From the NCBI RefSeq assembly GCF_009727055.1, contig NC_052349.1, positions 92,464,902 through 92,528,901 on the forward strand: a DNA stretch of 64,000 bases. The letters are read 5' to 3'. The DNA comes from Benincasa hispida (lineage: Eukaryota > Streptophyta > Magnoliopsida > Cucurbitales > Cucurbitaceae). Both the position numbers and the translations under genes were made by a program. Positions 8,529-63,960 of this stretch are shown in pieces. Position 1 is the stretch's first letter; the number at the start of each line of letters is the position of its first letter. A model generated the notes under the pieces. It saw only the letters and a program-made list of their open reading frames with translations, had not been told where the DNA came from and ran no database searches.

Positions 8529-9899
8529 TGTTGGAGTTGATATCCTAAAGTCTCGTGTCCTATAGTTTGTAAACAATTTGTTCGAACGCTTGTGTTGTAT
8601 AATATATGATATTTACTTCACATCTTATATTTTGCTCAGTTGCTTGTTTTATTTGCTTTACCACAAACCAATAAACATAAAATCCCTGGTTATCTGTATG
8701 TGACTCAAGCATGTATGTGGTGACATACAACTGGATCATGTCTTGAGTGATAACCAAAATGGTCTGTAGTATATGGATATAGGAGGGTGGATCTCGAGGC
8801 TACAGAGTTTAGTCAGCTATTCATGGACCGTTAGAGCTTCAAGCCACAGGTGCATTAGGTCCCCTGGGTAGCTTGGATAAAGCCGAGAATCGGTATTTGG
8901 TTTAATTTGAAATGTTCAAATTGACAAGAGGAAGTTCGATTATATATGATATAATTGGACTGGTTAATTATATATGATATAATTGGCTAAATATATGAGA
9001 TACATTATTTTGGAGGAAATTAGATATAAATATGATTTATATCAAGTAGAAGAGAAATTACTATAGTAGATATGTGATATCAAACTATAGGGTAAAAATA
9101 TAATATGATTATATTTATTAATATTTTAATTAAGCCAAAATCACGTTCGGACATGCGTTAGTGGAAGAGCATTGGTTATTGTAACCGATAAATTAAAATA
9201 AAATTTGTTTCAATTTTGAACGGTTCGATGGAAAAAGAGATAAAAAAGAGTGCGTTGGTGAAATTGTAATCGATCGCTTAAAATCGAGAGCCTATACGAT
9301 AGTCATTCTACGCCTAAACAATCGCACACTAAGTCCTTAATGATCGGTTAGCTTTCCTAAATGATCGTATAGTGTGTCGTGTTTGCTAAACGATCACCTT
9401 CTATTTTCTAAACAATCGTTTAGTAAAATCTACACGATCGTGTAGTTTCTCCTAAACGATAAGCATCTTGCTATACGATAGCATCTTTTTCCCTCCCACT
9501 TGCTTATTGCCTACACGATTTGTTCTTCCTCTTTCCTCTACCAAACTCACCGAAGACCACGCTTTGGGTTCTCACTCCGAGAATACCTGGGGCTCTTTTG
9601 TGGTGGTGTCGTCCCCGTTGCGTTCGTGTTTGTGCGGTTGTTCGTGCTGCTATAGTCGACGCATTTGCTGAGCGTTGGTAGATCGGGTAGAGGTTTTCGT
9701 TGCGTTGCGTTCCAAAGGTTGAAGACTGTCTTCAACTGATATGGAAACTCTCTCCCTTGTAATTTCTTGTTCAAAACATGTTGATAATTACTGTTTGTTT
9801 GCATAACTGCGTGTTTGAATGTATTTGATATATTTTGGTCACTGTGAAATTGAAGTGATCCAAACGTGATCATGGAACTCTTCGTCAAGAGCTCCTTCA
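8529..9899 (+). repeat. Cop-B solo LTR nested in Cop-A
   Basis: Starts TGTTGGAGTTGATATCCTAA and ends GAGCTCCTTCA, 1,371 bp. Flanks CGTGG (8524-8528) and TGTGA (9900-9904) match at 3 of 5 bases, an eroded target duplication; the host LTR reads continuously once the insert is removed. It holds an ACGATCGT-palindrome array at about 9265-9480. The apparent reading frames inside it are LTR sequence. Confidence 0.8.
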
Positions 9900-10430: not shown

Positions 10431-10831
10431 GTTAACCTAGGTTACTCAATAATGAAATAGTCAGCTTTAATAGTAAACGGTCGTTATAAAGAAAAGTGAC
10501 TATTTTCGTGGTTCAGTCTATGTTCAAACTCATTGCATAGGATGTCTCCACTCACATGTCTCTACATGAATGATTTGTGGATCACATCATTTGTACTACC
10601 TACAAAATAGGCCGCATCCAATAGTGTTATGGGTTAACCTAGGTTACTTAATAATGAAATAGTCGGTTTTAACAGTAAACGATCGTTATAAAGAAAAGTG
10701 ACTATTTTCGTGGTTCAGTCTATATGCAAACTCATTGCATAGGATGCACCCACTCACATGTCTTTACATGAATGATTTGTGGATTACATCATTTGTACTA
10801 CCTACAAAATAGGTCACATCCAATAGTGTTA
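10431..10831. repeat. 202-bp tandem duplication within the Cop-A LTR
   Basis: GTTAACCTAGGTTACT begins a unit at 10431 and again at 10633; the units align along their length with scattered differences. Sister LTRs carry one copy, so the duplication happened in this copy. Confidence 0.85.
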
Positions 10832-13492: not shown

Positions 13493-15110
13493 ATGAGCGT
13501 TACTTTAAACCTGCTTTCCACTGATAAGCCAAACAATGATAACTATCCGAGTTGGAAAAATACTACTAATACTGTACTCATTATCGATGACCTATGATTC
13601 ATTCTAATTAAGGAATGTCCTTAAGTCCAGCTGCCAATGCAATCTGAAATTTTTGAGAGGCACGTATATCTTGGCCAACTTGTCTGAAGTTTTAGCCAAA
13701 AAGCATGAGCCCATGCTCACAGCTCGTGAGATCATGGAGTCCCTGAGGGGAATGTTTAGACAACCGTCCACACAACTCAAGTATAACGCTCTCAAGTTCA
13801 TCTTCAATGCCCAGATGAAAGAAGGGACCTCAGTTCATAAACATGTTCTGACATGATGATCCTCTTTGACATAGTTGAGATGAACGGGTCTATCATCGAT
13901 GAAGTTAGTCAGGTTAGCTTCATCTTGGAAACTTTACTTGAAAGTTTTCTTCAATTCTGCACCAACGCTGTCATGAACAAGCTTGACTACAACTTGACCA
14001 TCTTTCTCAACGAGCTACAGACATACTAGTACTTAATGAAAATTGAGGAACAGAAGGGTGAGACAAATGTTACCTTGTCGTCCAAAAAGTTCTACAGAGG
14101 TTTGACCTCTGGAACGAAGTCTGCACCTTCTTCCACTGGCACCAAAGTGGAAGAAGATGAAGGAGGTCAAGGGAAAGCTAACCCCGCTGCTGCCCAAAAG
14201 GGCAAGAAGGCCAAGGCTGCGAAGGGAATATGTTTGCATTGCAACCAGAAGGGACACTAGAAGAAGAATTGTCCCAAATATTTCCAGAAAAGAAGAAGGC
14301 CAAACAAGGTAAGTATGATTCACTCGTGTTGGAAACTTATTTAATGGAGAATGATGATTCTACCTTGATAATTGATTCAGACGCCACTAACCATGTTTGT
14401 TCTTCATTTCAGGGAATTAGTTCCTATCGGCAGCTGGAGACTAGTGAAATGACGATGTGGGTTGAAACTGAGCACGTCTTCTTGGTTGTGGCAGTGAGAG
14501 GTCTCCGGTTGACTTTAAAGAACAAATTTTTCATTTCAGGGAATTAGTTCCTATCGGCAGCTGGAGACTAGTGAAATGACGATGTGGGTTGGAACTGGGC
14601 ACGCTGTCTCAGCTTTAGTGTGGAAGGACTCCGTTTATATTTACATAAATCATATCTTTTGTTGAACAATGTATATATAGTTCCCGACTTAGAAAAGGGA
14701 CTTTATTTCTACAAATGTTTGTTAGAACAATCATATACTCTAAATTTTATTGTGAATAAAATGTTTATTTAAGAAAATGGTGTTAATTTTTTTTTTTTGC
14801 AAACTTAGAGAGTAACCTTTATGTGCTAAGGCCATTAGTATCTAAGGCTTTACTTAATACTAAAAATTTTCAAAACTTTTGTAATTGAAAACAACAAACA
14901 AAATGTTTCTCTTAAAGAAAATACCCAACTTTGGAATCTAAAATTAGGTCACATTAATCTTAATAGGATTGAGAGATTTGTTAAAAGCGGACTTCTAAAT
15001 GACTTAGAAGAAAAATCTTTACTAGTATGTGGGTCATGCCTTGAAGACAAAATGACTACGTAAACTTTTACTAGAAAAAGTCACAAAGAAACTCTTAAAA
15101 TTTATACCTT
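13493..15110 (+). pseudogene. Copia gag-protease-GAG_pre-integrase remnant
   Basis: The ATG at 13493 opens a Copia gag: an N-terminal segment with NDNYPSWK, then VYILANLSEVLAKKHEPML-like helices (about 13660-13710), and a lysine-rich linker. The nucleic-acid-binding zinc knuckle, CxxCxxxxGHxxxxxC, lies at 14230-14275 with its Trp codon turned into TAG. The aspartic protease motif near 14370 reads DSDATNHV, where active copies have DSGATNHV, so the catalytic site is altered. A 127-bp tandem duplication follows (copies from 14404 and 14531). The HHCC GAG_pre-integrase segment is at about 14930-15070 (LGHINLNRIERFV, then CxxC). Stops, for example TGA at about 13594, and frame changes make it non-functional. 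It ends where the LTR-derived cluster at 15113 begins; the integrase core is absent. Family known, activity excluded by sight. Confidence 0.85.
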
Positions 15111-38203: not shown

Positions 38204-38551
38204 TTAAGCGTTGGGTTTTATGTCCTAGAACTCGTAGTTTGTAAAAATTAAACATATTCTATTATCAATAAATATGTTATTCAACATTTCTTCAATAAAG
38301 GTATTGAATCTTTTAATTGCATTCATAAAGTCTGAATCCAATAAACTAAGATCCATGGCTATTATATGAATACTTGATCTTTATGTAAAGACATAAAGAT
38401 GGATAAAGTTCGAGTAAATAAACAAAACGGTCTATAGTATATGATTAAGGTTGGGTACCTTACTCTGGTAACACTATTTGATGCAGCCTACTTTGTAGCT
38501 GTTACAAGTTGTTGTAAAGATACTACAAACGAAGTGATCTATATTCGTTCA

Positions 38552-40356
38552 TGTTGGGTTTTATGTCCTAAAACTCGTGGTATGTAAACAATGGAGCTTA
38601 TTCTAAAAATTCAATAAAGGTGTTATTGAATAGATCTATTGCTTGAATAGAAATCCAATAAACTTAAAAGTCCCTTGACTATTGGATGAGTACTTGAACT
38701 TTATGTGGAGACATAAAGGTGGATCAAGTTCGAGTAAATAGTCAAAATGATCTATAGTACATGGATAAGGTTGAATACCTTATTCTGGTTACACTATTGG
38801 ATACGACCTGCTCTGTAGTTGTTACAAGGAGTTGTAAAGTGCTACAAAGGAAGTGATCCTAATTCGTTCATGTTGGACATGAGGAGTTGGGGTGTCCTTG
38901 TGGAAAAGAGTTTGTACAAGATCGGACCACGAAATGAGTCACTTTTACTTTATAACGCTATTTACTGTTTAAGACTGACTATTTCAAAGCGATGACCTAG
39001 GTAACTTGGCCTTAATCCTGAGCTAACTATGAACTCCTGTTTATCTGGGATTGCCCTTAGATTTGCATAGGTGAGGGTTGGCTCAACAGTGCCGGCCCAA
39101 TTTGATTGCCATTTCAGAGGTAAAACTTGATAGATAGCTAGGGACATAGGGTGCAAGAAGGAATTCACTCCTACCCACTCTAGGGATAATAGAGAGGTTG
39201 TTCCCTTAAATGCTGATTCTAGGGCTTGAATAAGGGATCCCGCCATCTCATTTGACATCAGAGGGACTCGGTTTTGTGATTGGATGATAAAAAAATTGTT
39301 CATTAGGAGATCAGTGGGGACTTAAGGAACAAGAGGTAATTTTGGGGGTAAAACAGAGATTTGACCCAGACGTTATTACTAACAACTTGTGAAGTGTTAA
39401 CTTACTAATCATGGTTTTATCGAGTGAATATAATATATCTACAGTGAGGGAAGTTCAACTATGGGCTTTAATGGAATGACCCATTAGTTAACGAATTGGG
39501 GTTAGATCAGTCTAATGAATTTAGCCGATTAATCTCGGATCGTTGGAGCCCATGATCTGTAGGTCCATGAGGTCCCCCTACTAGCTCGGAAATGTATAGC
39601 TCTAAAGTAGCGTGAGAAGTTAATTTGAAACGTTCAAATTAGAATCAAAAGGAATTAGAGGAAATATATTTAAATATGATTTAAATATATGAAGATGAAT
39701 TTGTGTAAAAATTAATTTAATATTGGATATTAAATTAATTAGTATTATTTAAATTGTTTATGAAATTAATTTGTAAAATTAATAAATTATTATTTTAGAA
39801 ATAAAATGTTATTTTAAAATCAAAATGGATTTTGGAAATTGAAAATTACATAAAACATGAAAAATGGGTTTTTCATTTCATCTTCAACTAGGTTACTTGG
39901 AACCCACCACCTATTCCTTTGCTTTACTCCAAGCATGAGCTGCATCCCATGCAACACATCTCTTTGCATGATAGTCTGCAATATATTGAAGAGATTGGAG
40001 TGAAGAAAGGAAGGAGAACTGACTAAATTTTTGCTGAAAAATTCGAATGAAGAAGGTGTTCTTCAATGGGTTATGTTCAGTGAGTTTTCTCCATATTCCC
40101 TTTGATTCCAGCTTATTTTGAGTCCCACAACTCAATCTAGAGCACCAAGAGGATAATAAGGAAGATCTTGTGGTGGTCTACACAAGGATTCGGAGGATTT
40201 TGCAGCTGGAAATGAAAATTTCATTGGTTTGGCTAAGGTATGTTCATGAAACCCATTAAACTCTGTTTTTAGCATGTTTCTTTTCAACAAAAATTAATTA
40301 ACTAGAGTGCTTATGGATCCTGATTTCTTCCGCTGCATGATGGTGTTGATCCAACA
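38552..40356 (+). repeat. Inner Cop-A LTR
   Basis: Starts TGTTGGGTTTTATGTCCTAA and ends TGATCCAACA, 1,805 bp, followed at once by the primer site, so it is a 5' LTR. Confidence 0.8.
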
Positions 40357-40358
40357 AT

Positions 40359-40370
40359 TGGTATTAGAGC
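40359..40370 (+). other. Copia primer-binding site
   Basis: TGGTATTAGAGC, one base from the initiator Met-tRNA complement, two bases after the LTR end. Confidence 0.8.
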
Positions 40371-40841
40371 ATCTTATAAGCATTCTGTCCAGATTAATTC
40401 TTGTTTGGTGGGTGTTTTGTATGAAGATATGAAACTGCTGTAATGATATAGTTTTCTGAGTTTTGGCCTTTAATTTCTCTTTAATTTCCCATTTAAATTT
40501 ATAATTGGCTATTGTTTGATGAGCTTTAATGTCTTCTCAAGAGTCTGTAATTTATTTCGAGTCATTAGAGTTAGAATTAAGCTGTAATTTGAAGAAACAA
40601 GTGAAGGGGTCAAGTTGCAGATTCCAGACGATCAGCCTCTGTTCATATCGACGTTGAGCTTCAGTAGCTAAACGATCGTTTAGCTTCATACGTTAGATGA
40701 TATGAAGGAAAATCTAAACGATCGTGTAGCTTTGGGAGTTAATCATTTAGGTGTTGTGCGCTAGACGATCGTCTACCTCGAAAGCTAAACAATGCGTTGT
40801 TTTACTATGCGATGGCACTACACGATCGTGTAGTTCTATAC

Positions 40842-40879
40842 CTGTCTCTTATACACATCTAGATGTGTATAAGAGACAG
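40842..40879. other. Nextera mate-pair junction sequence (artefact)
   Basis: CTGTCTCTTATACACATCT followed directly by its reverse complement: the 19-bp Tn5 mosaic end twice, tail to tail, exactly the circularisation junction of Illumina Nextera mate-pair libraries. Not plant DNA. Confidence 0.95.
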
Positions 40880-41001
40880 GCACTAAGAAATCGCTTACAT
40901 GATCATTTACCTATGAGTGATAGCTGAGTGATGCGTCGATTGCTATGCAATAGCACTAGGCGATCGCTTACCTCGGGTGCATGTTAAACGATCAAGACGC
41001 G

Positions 41002-41258
41002 ATGTTAAACGATGGAGCTATGCGACAGTGTTTGACACTAAGCGATCGTGTAGCATCCTCCGGCGCTAGACGATAACACTATACGATAACGCTAAGCAAT
41101 GAGGGGCCGTTAGACGATAAGTCGGAATCAAGATCTGTCTCTTATACACATCTAGATGTGTATAAGAGACAGATGTTAAACGATGGAGCTATGCGACAGT
41201 GTTTGACACTAAGCGATCGTGTAGCATCCTCCGGCGCTAGACGATAACACTATACGAT
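41002..41258 (+). repeat. 86-bp exact duplication around the second junction
   Basis: 41002-41087 and 41173-41258 are identical; the second begins right after the junction sequence at 41135-41172. Best read as an assembly duplication. Confidence 0.9.
41135..41172. other. Second Nextera mate-pair junction sequence (artefact)
   Basis: Same 38-bp perfect palindrome as at 40842. Two exact copies 293 bp apart amid strongly decayed repeats rule out an old insertion. Confidence 0.95.
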
Positions 41259-41380
41259 CGAAGGAAAATGTTATACGATCATGTAGCTTTGTTAAACAAT
41301 GGTTGCTAAACGATCAAGCAAACACTAAGCGATCAAGCTAATTACATGACGATGGTTGTCAATGCTAAACGATATGACTT

Positions 41381-41596
41381 AGTGAGATTTTGAGCGACAG
41401 CAAGAGAAGCCGATTCGACCGGTTCTCTTGAGGTTTGGTCCGGTTCAGCTTCAAATGGTTTGTGGTTGGTTCGTTTTAGTCTCTGCTGGTCCCGTTCAGA
41501 CGGTTCGGGTCCGGTTCAAGTGGTGCAAGCGGTTTTGGAGCGGTTAGGTTCAGTCTTTGCTGGTCCCGTTCAGAGCTTCAAATGGCTTGATAGTTA
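41381..41596 (+). mobile_element. Copia leader with CGGTTC-rich motif
   Basis: Non-coding; repeats built on GGTTCGGGTCCGGTTCA and GCTGGTCCCGTTCAG. Ends at the resumed outer LTR. Confidence 0.5.
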
Positions 41597-42641
41597 TAGT
41601 GGTGAGTGAGGAGAGTGCAACTATCGAGCTATAGTGGTGTGACTTTATAGTTAACGAATACTGATTAATTTTGTCTAAAGAGTTTTAGCAAATTAATCTT
41701 AATCGTTGGAGCTCATGATCTGTGGGTCCATAAAGTCCCTCTACTAGCTCGTAAAACATGAACACTTTGAATTAATAAATTGAGTGAATTTTGAATGATA
41801 TCAATTTGAATTGTTCAAATTGAATTAGGGTTTGAATTTTAATAAGTTCAAATTCAAATTAGGGTTTGTACAATTATATTTGATATAATTAATTAACATT
41901 TAATTTATTAAAATTAAACAAAATTGGAGACATTATAATATTTAATATTGATTTGAATATTAATTATATGAATGGGATTCATGTTTCAAATTTGATGTGT
42001 GATTAGATATTTAATTAATTAATTAATTAAATATATTTAACTAATTAAATTCAAATTAATTTTCAATTATAAATTCAATTTAAGAAATTGGATTTTGATA
42101 TTTGATTAATTATGAATTACTTAAATCATTTTTTAATTAATTGACTTTTGAAATGAAAAATTGGATTAAGTTGGTTTTTCCCACAAACTCTACAAGCATA
42201 CACAAATCCCACCTTTAATTGAAGTAGGTGCTAGCCATTTGATGGTTGAGGAATGCTTGTATGCTGAAGAAATATAAACTCTCACAATTTGCTGAAGACG
42301 AGGAAGAAGAGGAACTTGAGCTGTAAAAACTGGGTTTCTGCTACTTTATCTTCTTTCTCACAAACTCTCTTAATTTTCTCCACCAAATTCACTCAAATTC
42401 GAGTTCCACCACTCAAATTCAAGGTTGAGAATAGTAGAGAAGATCTATTGGTGGTTCACTGTCAATTTGGAGCTGAAAACACGTGAACAACAGCTTGGAT
42501 TTGGGAGAAATCAACAAAGGTATGTTTATCTTGAAACCCTTTTCAGTTTTATGAAATAACATGCTTTAGAACTCAAATTAAATATAATTAGAGTGCTTAT
42601 TGATTATGTTTTCTTCTGTTGCATGCTTGTGTATTCCATCA
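41597..42641 (+). repeat. 3' portion of the outer Cop-A LTR
   Basis: Aligns with 56285-57375, from AGGAGAGTGCAA to the end GTATTCCATCA. The TTAAG duplication follows. Confidence 0.75.
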
Positions 42642-55622: not shown

Positions 55623-57375
55623 GGGGTCTATAGTACATGATTAAGGTTGGGTACCTTATTCTGTTAACACTATTGGATGCAACCTACTTTATAGTTGTTA
55701 CAAGTTCGTTCATGAATTGACATGAGGAGTGGAGGCATCTTATGCAAGGAGTTTACATAAGATCAGACTAAGAAATAAGTCACTCTTACTTTATAACATT
55801 GTTTACTGTTTAAGATTGACTATTTCGCTTAGATGACCTAGGTAATTCAATCTTAATCCTGAGCCAATTATGAACTCCTTTCTATTCGGGATTATCCTTA
55901 GATTTTCATGGGTGAGGGTTGACTCATCAACATCGGCTCAATAAACCTCCCATTTTAGGGGTAAGACCAAGTAGATAGCTGGGGACATAGGGTGGAAGAT
56001 GGAATTCACGCCTATCCGATTTAGGGATAGAAGAAAGGTTGTTCTCTTAAGTACTGAATCCAGGTCTTGAACAAGGGGCCCCACTCTCTCACTGGCCCGA
56101 AAGGGATCCAGTATAGTAATTAGATCATAAGCCAATTGTTCATTAGAGGATCAATAGAAACTTAATGAACAAGACGTAATATCGGGGGTAAAACAACATA
56201 TTGACCAAGCCATTATTATGAACAACCTATGAAGGATTGACTTCTTAGTTATGGTTAAATCATGTGGACACAAATATATTTACAGTAAGGAGAGTGCAAT
56301 TATTGAGTTATAGTGGTATGACTTGATAGTTAACGAATATTGATTAATTTGATCTAAAGAGTTTTAGCCAATTAATCTTAATCGTTGGAGCTTATGATCT
56401 GTAGGTCCATAAGGTCACTCTACTAGCTCGTAAAACATCAACATCTTGAATTATTAAATTGAGTGAATGTGGAATAATATCAATTTGAAATGTTCAAATT
56501 GAAATTAGGTTTTGAATTTGGATGAGTTCAAATTCAAATTAGGGTTTGCACAAATTATATTTGATATAATTATTTAAACGTTTAATTTATTGAAATTAAA
56601 CGAATTTAGAGAGTTTATAATATTTAAATATTGATTTAAATATTAATTGCATGAATAGGATTCATGATTGAAATTTAATGTGTGATTAATTTGATATTTG
56701 ATATTAAATTAATTAATTAATTAAATATGTTTAATTAATTAAAATTTAAATTAATTTCCAATTTTAAATTCAATTTAAGAAATTGAATTTTGATATTTGA
56801 TTAATTATGAATTAATTAAATCATTTTTTGATTAATTTTGAATTAATTAATTATTGAAATGAAAAATTGGAAAAACTGGATTATATGGGTTTTGCCCGCA
56901 AACACCTTGAGAAGGAGGTGTTCTTCCTAGAAGCATACACAAATCCAACTTGAATTGAGAAGTAAGTGCTGGCCATTTGATGGTTGAGGAATGCTTGCGT
57001 GCCAAAGAAATATAAAACTCTCAATTTCAAAGAAGAAAATTAGTGGTTCTTGAGCTGGGAAAAAGGTTTTCTGCTACTTCATCTTCTTCTTCACAAGTAC
57101 CCTCAATATCCTTCACCAAATTCACTCAAATTCGAGTTCCACTACTCAAATTCAAGGCTGAAAATAGTAGAGAAGATCTCTTGGTAGTTTACTTTCGATT
57201 TGGAGTTGATTTGGAGTGAAGAGTAGCTTGGATTTGTGAGAAATCATCAAAGGTATATTCTTCTTGAAACCCTCTTTTGAATTTCTGAAGTAGCATGTTT
57301 TAGAACTAAAATTAAATATAATTAAAGTGCTTATTGATTTTGTTTGTTTTCGTTGCATGCCTTTGTATTCCATCA
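55623..57375 (+). repeat. Cop-A LTR, lacking its first ~220 bp
   Basis: Begins inside the family consensus at GTCTATAGTACATGATTAAG (compare 38431) and ends GTATTCCATCA. GTTTT occurs on both sides (55618-55622 and 57376-57380), odd for a truncated copy. Confidence 0.75.
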
Positions 57376-61779: not shown

Positions 61780-63960
61780 GATGATATTGATGTTGATGTG
61801 ATGACACAATTGGAATTGTTTGAGGCTGCATACAATAACTATTTTTAGTGTGAAAATCTGATAATTTTGAAGAATTATTAGATGATGCGAAGAAACCATT
61901 GTACCCAAATTGTAAAACTTTTTCCAAAATATCTACATTGGTAAAGTTATATAATTTAAAACCTAATTTGGATGGAGCGATAAGAGTTTCACTGAGTTGT
62001 TGGAATTAATTCATGACATGTTACCTAGTCCTAATAAAATTTCAACTTCTACTTATGAAGCAGAAAAGATGTTGGGTACTCTTGGAATGAAGTACGAGAA
62101 GATTCATGCATGTAGAAACGATTGTTGTTTGTTTAGAAAAGAACTCTCTAATGCAAATGTATACCCCATTTGTGGTACGTCAAGATGGAAGCTTCAAAAA
62201 AATTTAAACAAAAGGGCTAAGAATATCCCAGCAAAAGTGATGTGGTATTTCTCCCCAATTCCAAGATTTGAAAGAATGTTTCGAAGTAAAGAAACAGCAA
62301 GTTTATTGACGTGTCATGCTAAAAAAAAGAAATAAATGGTTTATTAAAACATCCAAAGATGCCCTATTGTGGAAAAAAATAGACAATTTGTGGCCAGAGT
62401 TTGGGTTAGAACCTAGAAATCTTCATTTTGCTCTTTCGAAAGATGGGGTAAATCCACATGGAGATCTTAGTAATAGATATAGTTGTTGGCCAGTGATGTT
62501 AGTGACGTACAATCTACCTCCATGGTTGTGCATAAGCAAAATTTTTTTATGTTGACTGCATTAATATCTGGTCCTAAACAACCAGAAAATGACATAGATG
62601 TTTATTTAGCTTTGTTAGTAGATGACTTGAAAAAGTTTTGGAAAGATGGGGTAGAATATTACGATGCATATGAAGAACAACATTTCATGCTTAAAGCCAT
62701 TTTATTATGGACCATTAATGATTTTTCTACGTATGGTAACTTGTGTGGTTGTACAGTTAAAGGATATCATGTATGTCCAATTTGTGGAGAGAATACTTCA
62801 TCCACTTATTTACCAAAAAGGAAAAGGATGGTATATCTCGGGCATCACAAGTTTCTACCCCGCCATCATCCATATAGGAAACAAAAGAAAGCGTTTAATG
62901 GCGCACAAGAATTAGAATTTGGTCCAAAACCATTGAGTGGGGAAGAAATTCTTGCAGAAACAAGTAAGTATCAATATTTATTTGGTAAGAAAAGTATCAA
63001 AGAAAAGAACAGTGGAGATAGCATTTCAACTTATTGGAAGAAAAAATCTATTCTTTTGAGTTAGAATACTGGAAGTATCTTGACGTGTGACATTGTTTAG
63101 ACGTGATGCATATTGAAAAGAATGTATGTGCAAATCTTATTGGCACTGAACATTAGATCAGAGTTAGCCCCTCAAGTAGGAGAGAAAAAAGTCTTTTTAC
63201 CTCCCGCATGTTATACATTAACACGAGCTGAGAAATTGAGCTTTTGTAAGGTACTATCAGAAATTAATGCACCTGAAGGCTATTCATCGAACATTCAAAG
63301 TTTAGGGTCACTCACATATTTGAAACTTTACGGACTTAAGTCGCATGACCATCACGTTCTTATGCAACAATTATTTCCGGTAGCCATTCGTGATATTTTA
63401 CCCAAACATGTAAGACTTGCAATTACTCGCCTATGCTTCTTCTTTAATGTTATATGTTGCAAGGTGATCGATTCATTTCAGTTAAAGAGTATGCAAGAGG
63501 ATATTGTTATCACTCTATGCCTCTTAGAGAAGTATTTTCCGCCATCATTCTTCACAATAATGGTACACCTTGTAGTGCATCTCGTATGAGAAGTTGAGTT
63601 TTGTGGACCTGTTTATTTGAGGTGGATGTATCCTTTTGAACAATACATGAGTGTTGAAAACTTCTGTATGAAATAGAAATCAACCAGAAGGATGTGTTAG
63701 AGAAAATTATATTGTTGAAGAGATTATAGAGTTTTGTTCTAAATTCATATCTGGTGTTAATTCTATTGGGCTAAACTCATCAACAAAGAAAGCAAATTCA
63801 AACATTGATAGAGCATTGTTAGCTACTTCTTTTATCAGATTGAGTAAGGATGAGTTGGATCAAGCTCATCTTTATGTCATTCAAAATGTAAATGATATTC
63901 TTTCTTACGTCGAGTATGTAGATCTTCATCTTATTCTTGTTTTAGGTTACTTGATTATTC
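61780..63960 (+). pseudogene. CACTA transposase, Tnp2 family with DUF4218-like end
   Basis: Tnp2-type transposase, which cuts the element at its ends. In order: LELFEAAYNNYF (61810-61848, stop), EELLDDAKKPLYPNCKTFSK (from 61871), then DMLPSPNKISTSTYEAEKML and MKYEKIHACRNDCCLF (62010-62140), the CxxC at 62165, AKVMWYFSPIPRFERMF (62238-62285). The frame shifts at the A8 run 62321-62328 to WKKIDNLWPEFGLEPRN and SNRYSCWPVMLVTYNLPPWL, and again near 62535 to LTALISGPKQPENDIDVYLA, TINDFSTYGNLCGCTVKGYH and CPICGE (62540-62800). DVMHIEKNVCANL is at 63103, then a DUF4218-like segment (CYTLTRAEKLSFCKVL, DILPKHVRLAITRLC) to about 63590, with weaker matches to 63960. Three or more shifts suggest a dead copy, though introns could explain one. 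Confidence 0.85.

What the first reader, a model, noticed from the sequence alone, without database searches (positions are those of the whole stretch)
40842..41258. Sequencing-library junctions and a false duplication embedded in the assembly
Two exact 38-bp copies of the Nextera mate-pair circularisation junction sit at 40842-40879 and 41135-41172, and the second is followed by an exact 86-bp copy of 41002-41087. In a mate-pair read the two sides of such a junction come from ends of a long fragment, so the order and distance of sequence here are likely false. It may also explain why the Copia element here lacks an internal region.
Basis: partly seen in the sequence, partly recalled or inferred. 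Interest (0 to 1): 0.9.

Follow-up and report, generated by a model that had tools for sequence, protein, structure and literature searches.

The report
Library adapters left in gourd assembly
Two pieces of laboratory adapter, with a falsely repeated stretch beside one of them, sit in this plant genome assembly as leftovers of the sequencing library; it is an error rather than biology, and the same adapter piece occurs about ten thousand times in the same assembly.

Summary
Two exact 38-bp palindromes lie at 40842-40879 and 41135-41172, each the 19-bp Tn5 mosaic end joined to its reverse complement, and 41002-41087 recurs exactly at 41173-41258. They are untrimmed Nextera-type mate-pair junctions. 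The assembly around the window (912,946,352 bp) holds the 38-mer 9,991 times, reversed control 0; its size matches the published wax gourd assembly B227, built with 2- and 8-kb mate pairs.

In the 11 fetched paralogs of this repeat (of 40 scored candidates) the blocks keep their order; none has the 47 bp at 41088-41134 or a junction there. So 41088-41258 is most likely a false 171-bp insert, and junction 1 stands where paralogs have 35-315 bp of array. Order and strand look sound; distance is off by hundreds of bases. The junctions do not explain a missing retrotransposon interior: paralogs share the LTR-array layout, and the window's copy breaks at 41545-41605, where no junction lies.

Verdict: assembly artefact of practical interest.

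The parts
40842..40879 (.). junction 1: 19-bp mosaic end + its reverse complement, 38-bp palindrome
   Evidence: exact; 9,991 copies in the assembly
41135..41172 (.). junction 2, identical to junction 1
   Evidence: exact
40600..40841 (+). segment A, left of junction 1: element leader and start of a CGAT-rich array; aligns to paralogs up to 40833, its last 8 bp do not
   Evidence: 90-93% to 11 of 11 fetched paralogs
40880..41001 (+). segment B1, right of junction 1: array units
   Evidence: 81-88% to 11 of 11 fetched paralogs (partial in some), 35-315 bp after A
41002..41087 (+). segment X, first copy (86 bp)
   Evidence: 88-96% to 10 of 11 fetched paralogs
41088..41134 (+). 47 bp between X and junction 2, not found in the 11 fetched paralogs; 37 bp of it, with the 25 bp before, are exact on another contig (C2:27657518-27657579)
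41173..41258 (+). segment X, second copy, exact; false duplication
41259..41420 (+). segment C2, which follows X in the paralogs
   Evidence: computed gap to X 0 in 5 of 10 paralogs, -9 to -35 in 4 (extrapolated from partial alignments); in the tenth, L150, one search shows X then C2 directly
40581..41520 (.). CGAT-rich array in which both junctions lie
   Evidence: 25 CGAT in the block; 2.5-4.0 per 100 bp in A, B and C against 0.23 in the rest of the window
38552..40357 (+). LTR of the element (ends approximate), followed by a primer-binding-site-like motif at 40359-40370
   Evidence: four longer paralog stretches align from 38549/38552; motif
41605..42641 (+). part of an LTR of another subfamily; not the partner of the LTR at 38552
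   Evidence: 81.7% to 56284-57375 over 1,098 bp, against 73.3% over 400 bp to the upstream LTR

Best explanation
The two palindromes are circularisation junctions of a Nextera-type (Tn5 tagmentation) mate-pair library that were not trimmed from the reads and were assembled into the genome. Tagmentation puts the mosaic end on each fragment end; closing the circle joins two of them head to head into 38 bp. The locus is a CGAT-rich array in a dispersed LTR element, hard for short reads, and the assembler crossed it with reads that ran into junctions. At junction 1 array sequence between A and B was replaced by the junction. At junction 2 the path left X through 47 bp of a related copy, crossed the junction, re-entered X at the first base after the junction, and went on into the true continuation C, leaving a false 171-bp insert (41088-41258). 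Shown: the adapter letters, their number in the assembly, the absence of the insert from 11 fetched paralogs, the order in paralogs. Inferred: that the reads were untrimmed, the exact assembler step, and whether the molecule behind junction 2 was a small circle or an ordinary mate-pair circle meeting a repeat.
For: 38-mer exact 9,991 times in the 912,946,352-bp assembly, reversed control 0; the 19-mer 10,766 + 10,764 times, control 0. Size equals the 912.95 Mb stated for B227, whose methods list 2- and 8-kb Illumina mate pairs, ALLPATHS-LG and PBJelly (passages). Fragment ends follow Tn5 target preference: at 94 ends from 47 junctions of this assembly G is 43% at position 1, C/T 79% at 4, A/T 84% at 5, A/G 76% at 6, C 39% at 9 (no background computed there); all four ends in the window fit YWRA, window background 5.4%. 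No 9-bp target duplication at either junction. Paralogs. Same signature elsewhere in the assembly: 17 of 47 sampled junctions have a flank repeated within 500 bp, control 0 of 309. One place has four junctions in 167-bp steps with the identical 129-bp unit in the three gaps and again after the last.
Against: The reads were not seen. PMC6856369 says 'Illumina standard protocol' and its main text has 0 occurrences of Nextera and of adapter. 30 of 47 sampled junctions show no repeated flank within 500 bp. A toy simulation of gap extension made a junction join in only 2 of 300 runs. The paralogs' blocks are roughly 80-96% alike to the window's, not alleles, so the exact true sequence at this locus is not known; three other copies of the array also match the palindrome.
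Confidence: 0.99

Rival explanations
1. Long-range chimera: the two sides of each junction lie 2 or 8 kb apart in the genome and were put side by side. (This and the next are rivals about the mechanism inside the artefact reading.)
For: This is what a proper mate-pair junction is (passages). The 47 bp left of junction 2 do not belong to the family's usual order, and 62 exact bases (X tail plus 37 of the 47 bp) lie on another contig.
Against: A, B1, X and C2 keep order and strand in the 10 of 11 fetched paralogs that have all four. No second copy of either flank of junction 1 within 40.8 kb upstream or 23.1 kb downstream; one other junction of the assembly without near repeat (C1:586297) has no near-identical flank copy within 9 kb on either side, only one 76% hit over 63 bp. 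In public plasmids with a junction, relatives hold both flanks together: span 1,976 against 2,038 bases in the 11 other records listed for one; for another the closest relative spans 2,045 against 2,038 and ten more distant ones 2,048-2,049 for 2,033. The third plasmid region was inconclusive.
Confidence: 0.12
2. Small circles: at junction 2 a fragment of 133 bp (41002-41134) was closed into a circle of 171 bp, and reads running round it gave X, 47 bp, junction, X.
For: Exact geometry 133 + 38 = 171. Four junctions in 167-bp steps with an identical 129-bp unit elsewhere in the assembly. Symmetric repeats of 78-190 bp at 7 of 47 sampled junctions.
Against: The second copy matches for 86 of 133 bp only. 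In the public survey 13 of 18 symmetric repeats are 64 bp or shorter, which I take as too short for a closed duplex circle (recalled). It would explain junction 2 but not junction 1.
Confidence: 0.4
3. A real mosaic-end sequence in the plant genome, from a Tn5-like insertion or a transgene.
For: The 38-mer is in the record.
Against: Recalled natural Tn5 ends differ from the mosaic end at 3 and 4 of 19 bases. No 9-bp target duplication at either junction or at 47 others. The same 38-mer occurs in unrelated bacterial, viral and plasmid records.
Confidence: 0.003
4. The 86-bp repeat is a natural array duplication and only the 38-mers are foreign.
For: The locus is an array with related units; 2 of the 11 fetched paralogs have two X copies (L146, L150).
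Against: The copy is 100% identical while the other array units listed are 71-86% alike to their reference unit, and it begins at the first base after the junction.
Confidence: 0.03

Closest known systems
Nextera mate-pair circularisation junction (two Tn5 mosaic ends head to head)
   Same: Letters (recalled), length, palindrome, orientation to the flanks, Tn5 target preference of the cut ends.
   Different: It sits in an assembly instead of a read.
Adapter junctions left in public assemblies (bacterial/archaeal contigs, viral contigs, plasmids)
   Same: Same 38-mer; a flank repeated within 400 bp at 38 of 143 unique junctions, control 6 of 3,384.
   Different: In the public survey 37 of 154 places lie within 500 bp of an N run, control 154 of 1,581; 0 of the 47 sampled in this assembly do.
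IS50/Tn5 insertion
   Same: The mosaic end is derived from Tn5 ends (recalled).
   Different: 3 and 4 mismatches to the two natural ends (recalled letters), no element between the ends, no target duplication.

Membership tests
Nextera mate-pair junction | 19-bp mosaic end followed at once by its reverse complement | tested here: met
   that these letters are the kit's junction is recalled; PMC11575248 (passages) gives Nextera read-through sequences that begin with the same 19 bases
Nextera mate-pair junction | ends of the flanking fragments follow Tn5 target preference | tested here: met
   4 of 4 ends in the window fit YWRA, background 5.4%; but only 12 of 94 ends in the assembly sample and 38 of 296, background 3.6%, in public records fit the full core, so it is a weak marker by itself; consensus quoted in PMC8224930 (passages)
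Nextera mate-pair junction | library type used for this assembly | tested here: inconclusive
   mate pairs of 2 and 8 kb named, Nextera not
Nextera mate-pair junction | present across the assembly, not at one locus | tested here: met
   9,991 copies
Tn5/IS50 insertion | 9-bp target duplication | tested here: not met
   flanking 9-mers differ at both junctions; 0 of 47 in the assembly sample; 1 of 148 in the public survey
Long-range (2 or 8 kb) chimera | a flank recurs 2-8 kb away in outward order | tested here: not met
   junction 1: none within 40.8/23.1 kb; junction 2: only the copy 133 bp away. Absence could also mean that the true place is not assembled
Copia-type LTR element at this locus | LTR followed by primer binding site | tested here: met
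   motif at 40359-40370 and in 4 of 4 longer paralog stretches; that the motif marks a Copia-type binding site is recalled, and no polyprotein domain was tested at this locus
Copia-type LTR element at this locus | two matching LTRs around this interior | tested here: not met
   the LTR piece at 41605-42641 is closer to 56284-57375 than to the upstream LTR

The most novel reading that the evidence does not exclude
Some junction repeats in this assembly are imprints of real ligated DNA circles of about 116-228 bp, so the repeat lengths at the 9,991 junctions might carry the helical phasing of DNA cyclisation: an accidental physics experiment stored in a genome record.
Probability: 0.15. Interest if true: 0.35.

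Novelty: not a real feature. Interest (0 to 1): 0.22.

Why it matters
If the identification is right, a published crop reference carries 9,991 exact adapter junctions, about one per 91 kb, some with false duplications of tens to about 200 bp. Repeat annotation, structural-variant calls against this reference, and gene models that cross a junction can be wrong. One reading frame of the 38-mer is open (VSYTHLDVYKRQ), so adapter peptide could enter predicted proteins. The junctions are easy to mask by exact match.

Tried and rejected
Natural transposon end: rejected (mismatches, no target duplication). Long-range chimera at junction 1: judged unlikely from paralogs and lack of a second flank copy. 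Link to a missing Copia interior: rejected; the break lies at 41545-41605. Rfam: 0 matches at gathering scores. Pfam on 4 ORFs of 150 aa or more: 2 without a family, 2 with Transposase_21 and DUF4218 at 62-64 kb. A toy simulation of gap extension gave 201 clean closures, 97 open and 2 junction joins in 300 runs and was not informative. Look-ups of two further junction regions: one no match in phages, one matched plasmids only in short pieces, mostly the adapter. E. coli complete genomes and phage records: no match to the 38-mer. Momordica charantia (Nextera mate pairs; PMC5381343, passages) was considered as source and dropped when the assembly size became known. One protein search gave melon proteins as closest named hits, the best 73% over 91% of the query, melon hits 56-79%. 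Paper searches on adapter leftovers, on cucurbits with Nextera mate pairs and on wax gourd with adapter terms (15 of 4,115 listed), read as listings: I saw no title or abstract start reporting these junctions in B227. Full texts were not read for this, and most subscription journals are not held.

Full report
Observation. The window holds two identical 38-bp palindromes, 40842-40879 and 41135-41172, each the 19-mer CTGTCTCTTATACACATCT followed by its reverse complement. Stretch 41002-41087 is repeated without change at 41173-41258, starting at the first base after the second palindrome; the offset is 171 = 133 + 38. Chance is excluded (4 matches against a shuffle mean of 0.02). There is no N in the window and no exact match to the 11 other recalled adapters that I tested.

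What it is. The letters are those of the Nextera mate-pair junction (recalled; the 19-mer begins the Nextera read-through sequences quoted in PMC11575248, passages; tagging with junction adapters, circularising and shearing are described in PMC6298255, passages). The natural Tn5 ends, recalled, differ at 3 and 4 of 19 bases. No 9-bp target duplication flanks either palindrome.

Whole assembly. The window lies at G000:C1:92464902-92528901 of an assembly of 912,946,352 bases in 1,791 contigs. The 19-mer occurs 10,766 times forward and 10,764 reverse, the 38-mer 9,991 times; the reversed control gives 0 in each case. That is one junction per 91 kb. The total size equals the 912.95 Mb given for the wax gourd line B227 (PMC9905507, passages). 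The B227 paper lists mate-pair libraries of 2 and 8 kb, ALLPATHS-LG contigs, mate-pair scaffolding and PBJelly gap filling; 'adapter' and 'Nextera' do not occur in its main text (PMC6856369, passages). It gives 2,197 scaffolds, 397 of them anchored to 12 groups; I did not reconcile this with 1,791 contigs. A transposase fragment from the window has melon proteins as closest named relatives. The later paper attributes many large rearrangements in B227 to misplaced scaffolds (PMC9905507, section 10 read); it has 0 occurrences of 'adapter'. The identification as B227 is therefore strong but indirect.

Elsewhere. Of 143 unique junctions in the contigs with at least 100 bp on both sides, 38 have a flank repeated within 400 bp (18 symmetric, 20 one-sided), against 6 of 3,384 pseudo-junctions. 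37 of 154 places lie within 500 bp of an N run, against 154 of 1,581 control points. Ends at the junctions follow the Tn5 preference position by position, in public records (296 ends) and in this assembly (94 ends). The full core YWRA is met by 38 of 296 (background 3.6%) and 12 of 94 ends, so the window's 4 of 4 is more than typical and is not proof by itself. In the public survey 1 of 148 junctions has equal 9-mers on both sides. In two of three plasmid regions tested, relatives hold both flanks together within tens of bases; the third was inconclusive.

In this assembly. I fetched 40 stretches around the first listed junctions, all in the first 6.1 Mb of one contig; they hold 50 junctions, 47 after dropping identical flanks. 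7 have symmetric repeats (78-190 bp), 10 one-sided, 30 none within 500 bp; 0 have a 9-bp target duplication, 0 lie within 500 bp of an N run; the control for repeats is 0 of 309. One place has four junctions in 167-bp steps; the same 129-bp unit lies in the three gaps between them and follows the last.

The locus. Both junctions lie in a CGAT-rich array (40581-41520) that follows an LTR and a primer-binding-site-like motif. A search of the assembly with 40600-41420 had 3,351 first-look candidates, of which 40 were scored, with 113 matches; I examined the 11 best loci other than the window itself. All 11 have A and then B1, with 35-315 bp between. X is present in 10; it follows B1 directly in 6, with 43 bp between in two and an overlap of 21 in one, and for L150, which has a second array copy, the table does not apply. 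C2 follows X with a computed gap of 0 in five and -9 to -35 in four (extrapolated where alignments are partial); for L150 the hits show X followed directly by C2. The eleventh, L151, has no X. None of the 11 has a match to the 47 bp of 41088-41134, and none has a junction in the fetched 3.4-3.9 kb; L142 and L150 hold 58 and 45 N. Three other loci in the match list also match the palindrome, at 91-100% (C11:78689337, C12:77505612, C1:52774986), so this array may have attracted junctions more than once. The 62 bases 41063-41124, which include 37 of the 47 bp, are exact at C2:27657518-27657579, in a different array context. So the insert 41088-41258 is most likely false, and junction 1 stands where paralogs have array.

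How it arose. Untrimmed junction reads were used where the array stopped the assembler (inferred). For junction 2 the picture is X, then 47 bp of a related copy, junction, X again, then the usual continuation. A small circle of 133 + 38 bp would give this, but the second copy stops matching after 86 bp; an ordinary mate-pair circle whose other end lies in a related copy would also do. I cannot decide between them without reads. No second copy of junction 1's flanks exists within 40.8 kb upstream or 23.1 kb downstream.

The Copia remark. The 11 paralog stretches align with the window from the LTR side (as far as they were fetched) to 41520-41545; four longer stretches begin at 38549/38552 and carry the binding-site motif. 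So LTR, binding site and array in a row are the family's normal layout. After the point 41545 the four longer stretches are 90-94% alike to each other over 0.4-1.0 kb, and none matches the window there: it is the window's copy that is broken, and an LTR piece of another subfamily begins at 41605. No junction lies at that break.

Verdict. An artefact, explained in kind though not in every step, with one useful consequence: the reference should be masked at about ten thousand places.

Noticed in passing
40581-41520 and dispersed copies in the same assembly: A CGAT-rich array of degenerate units sits just downstream of the primer-binding-site motif in a dispersed LTR family; A-to-B1 spacing varies 35-315 bp among 11 fetched copies.
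   Followed up: partly
L197 positions 9437-9474 (C4:14267736-14267773): Another adapter junction lies 7 bp before a second copy of part of the same LTR, so LTR pairs in this assembly may be misjoined too.
   Followed up: no
14403-14464 and 14530-14591: An exact 62-bp direct repeat at offset 127 without an adapter between.
   Followed up: no
10431-10831: A 202-bp tandem duplication, two copies, 92% matches.
   Followed up: no
62483-63586: Transposase pieces (Transposase_21, DUF4218), CACTA-type by recall; best named relatives in melon.
   Followed up: partly
40844-40879: One frame of the junction is open and reads VSYTHLDVYKRQ, a possible contamination tag in predicted proteins.
   Followed up: no
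plasmid records NZ_CP032357.1, NZ_MT039157.1, NZ_KY978628.1, NZ_MF589339.1, NZ_MF918372.1: Records in a plasmid database that carry the same adapter junction; the four fetched are titled complete sequence.
   Followed up: partly
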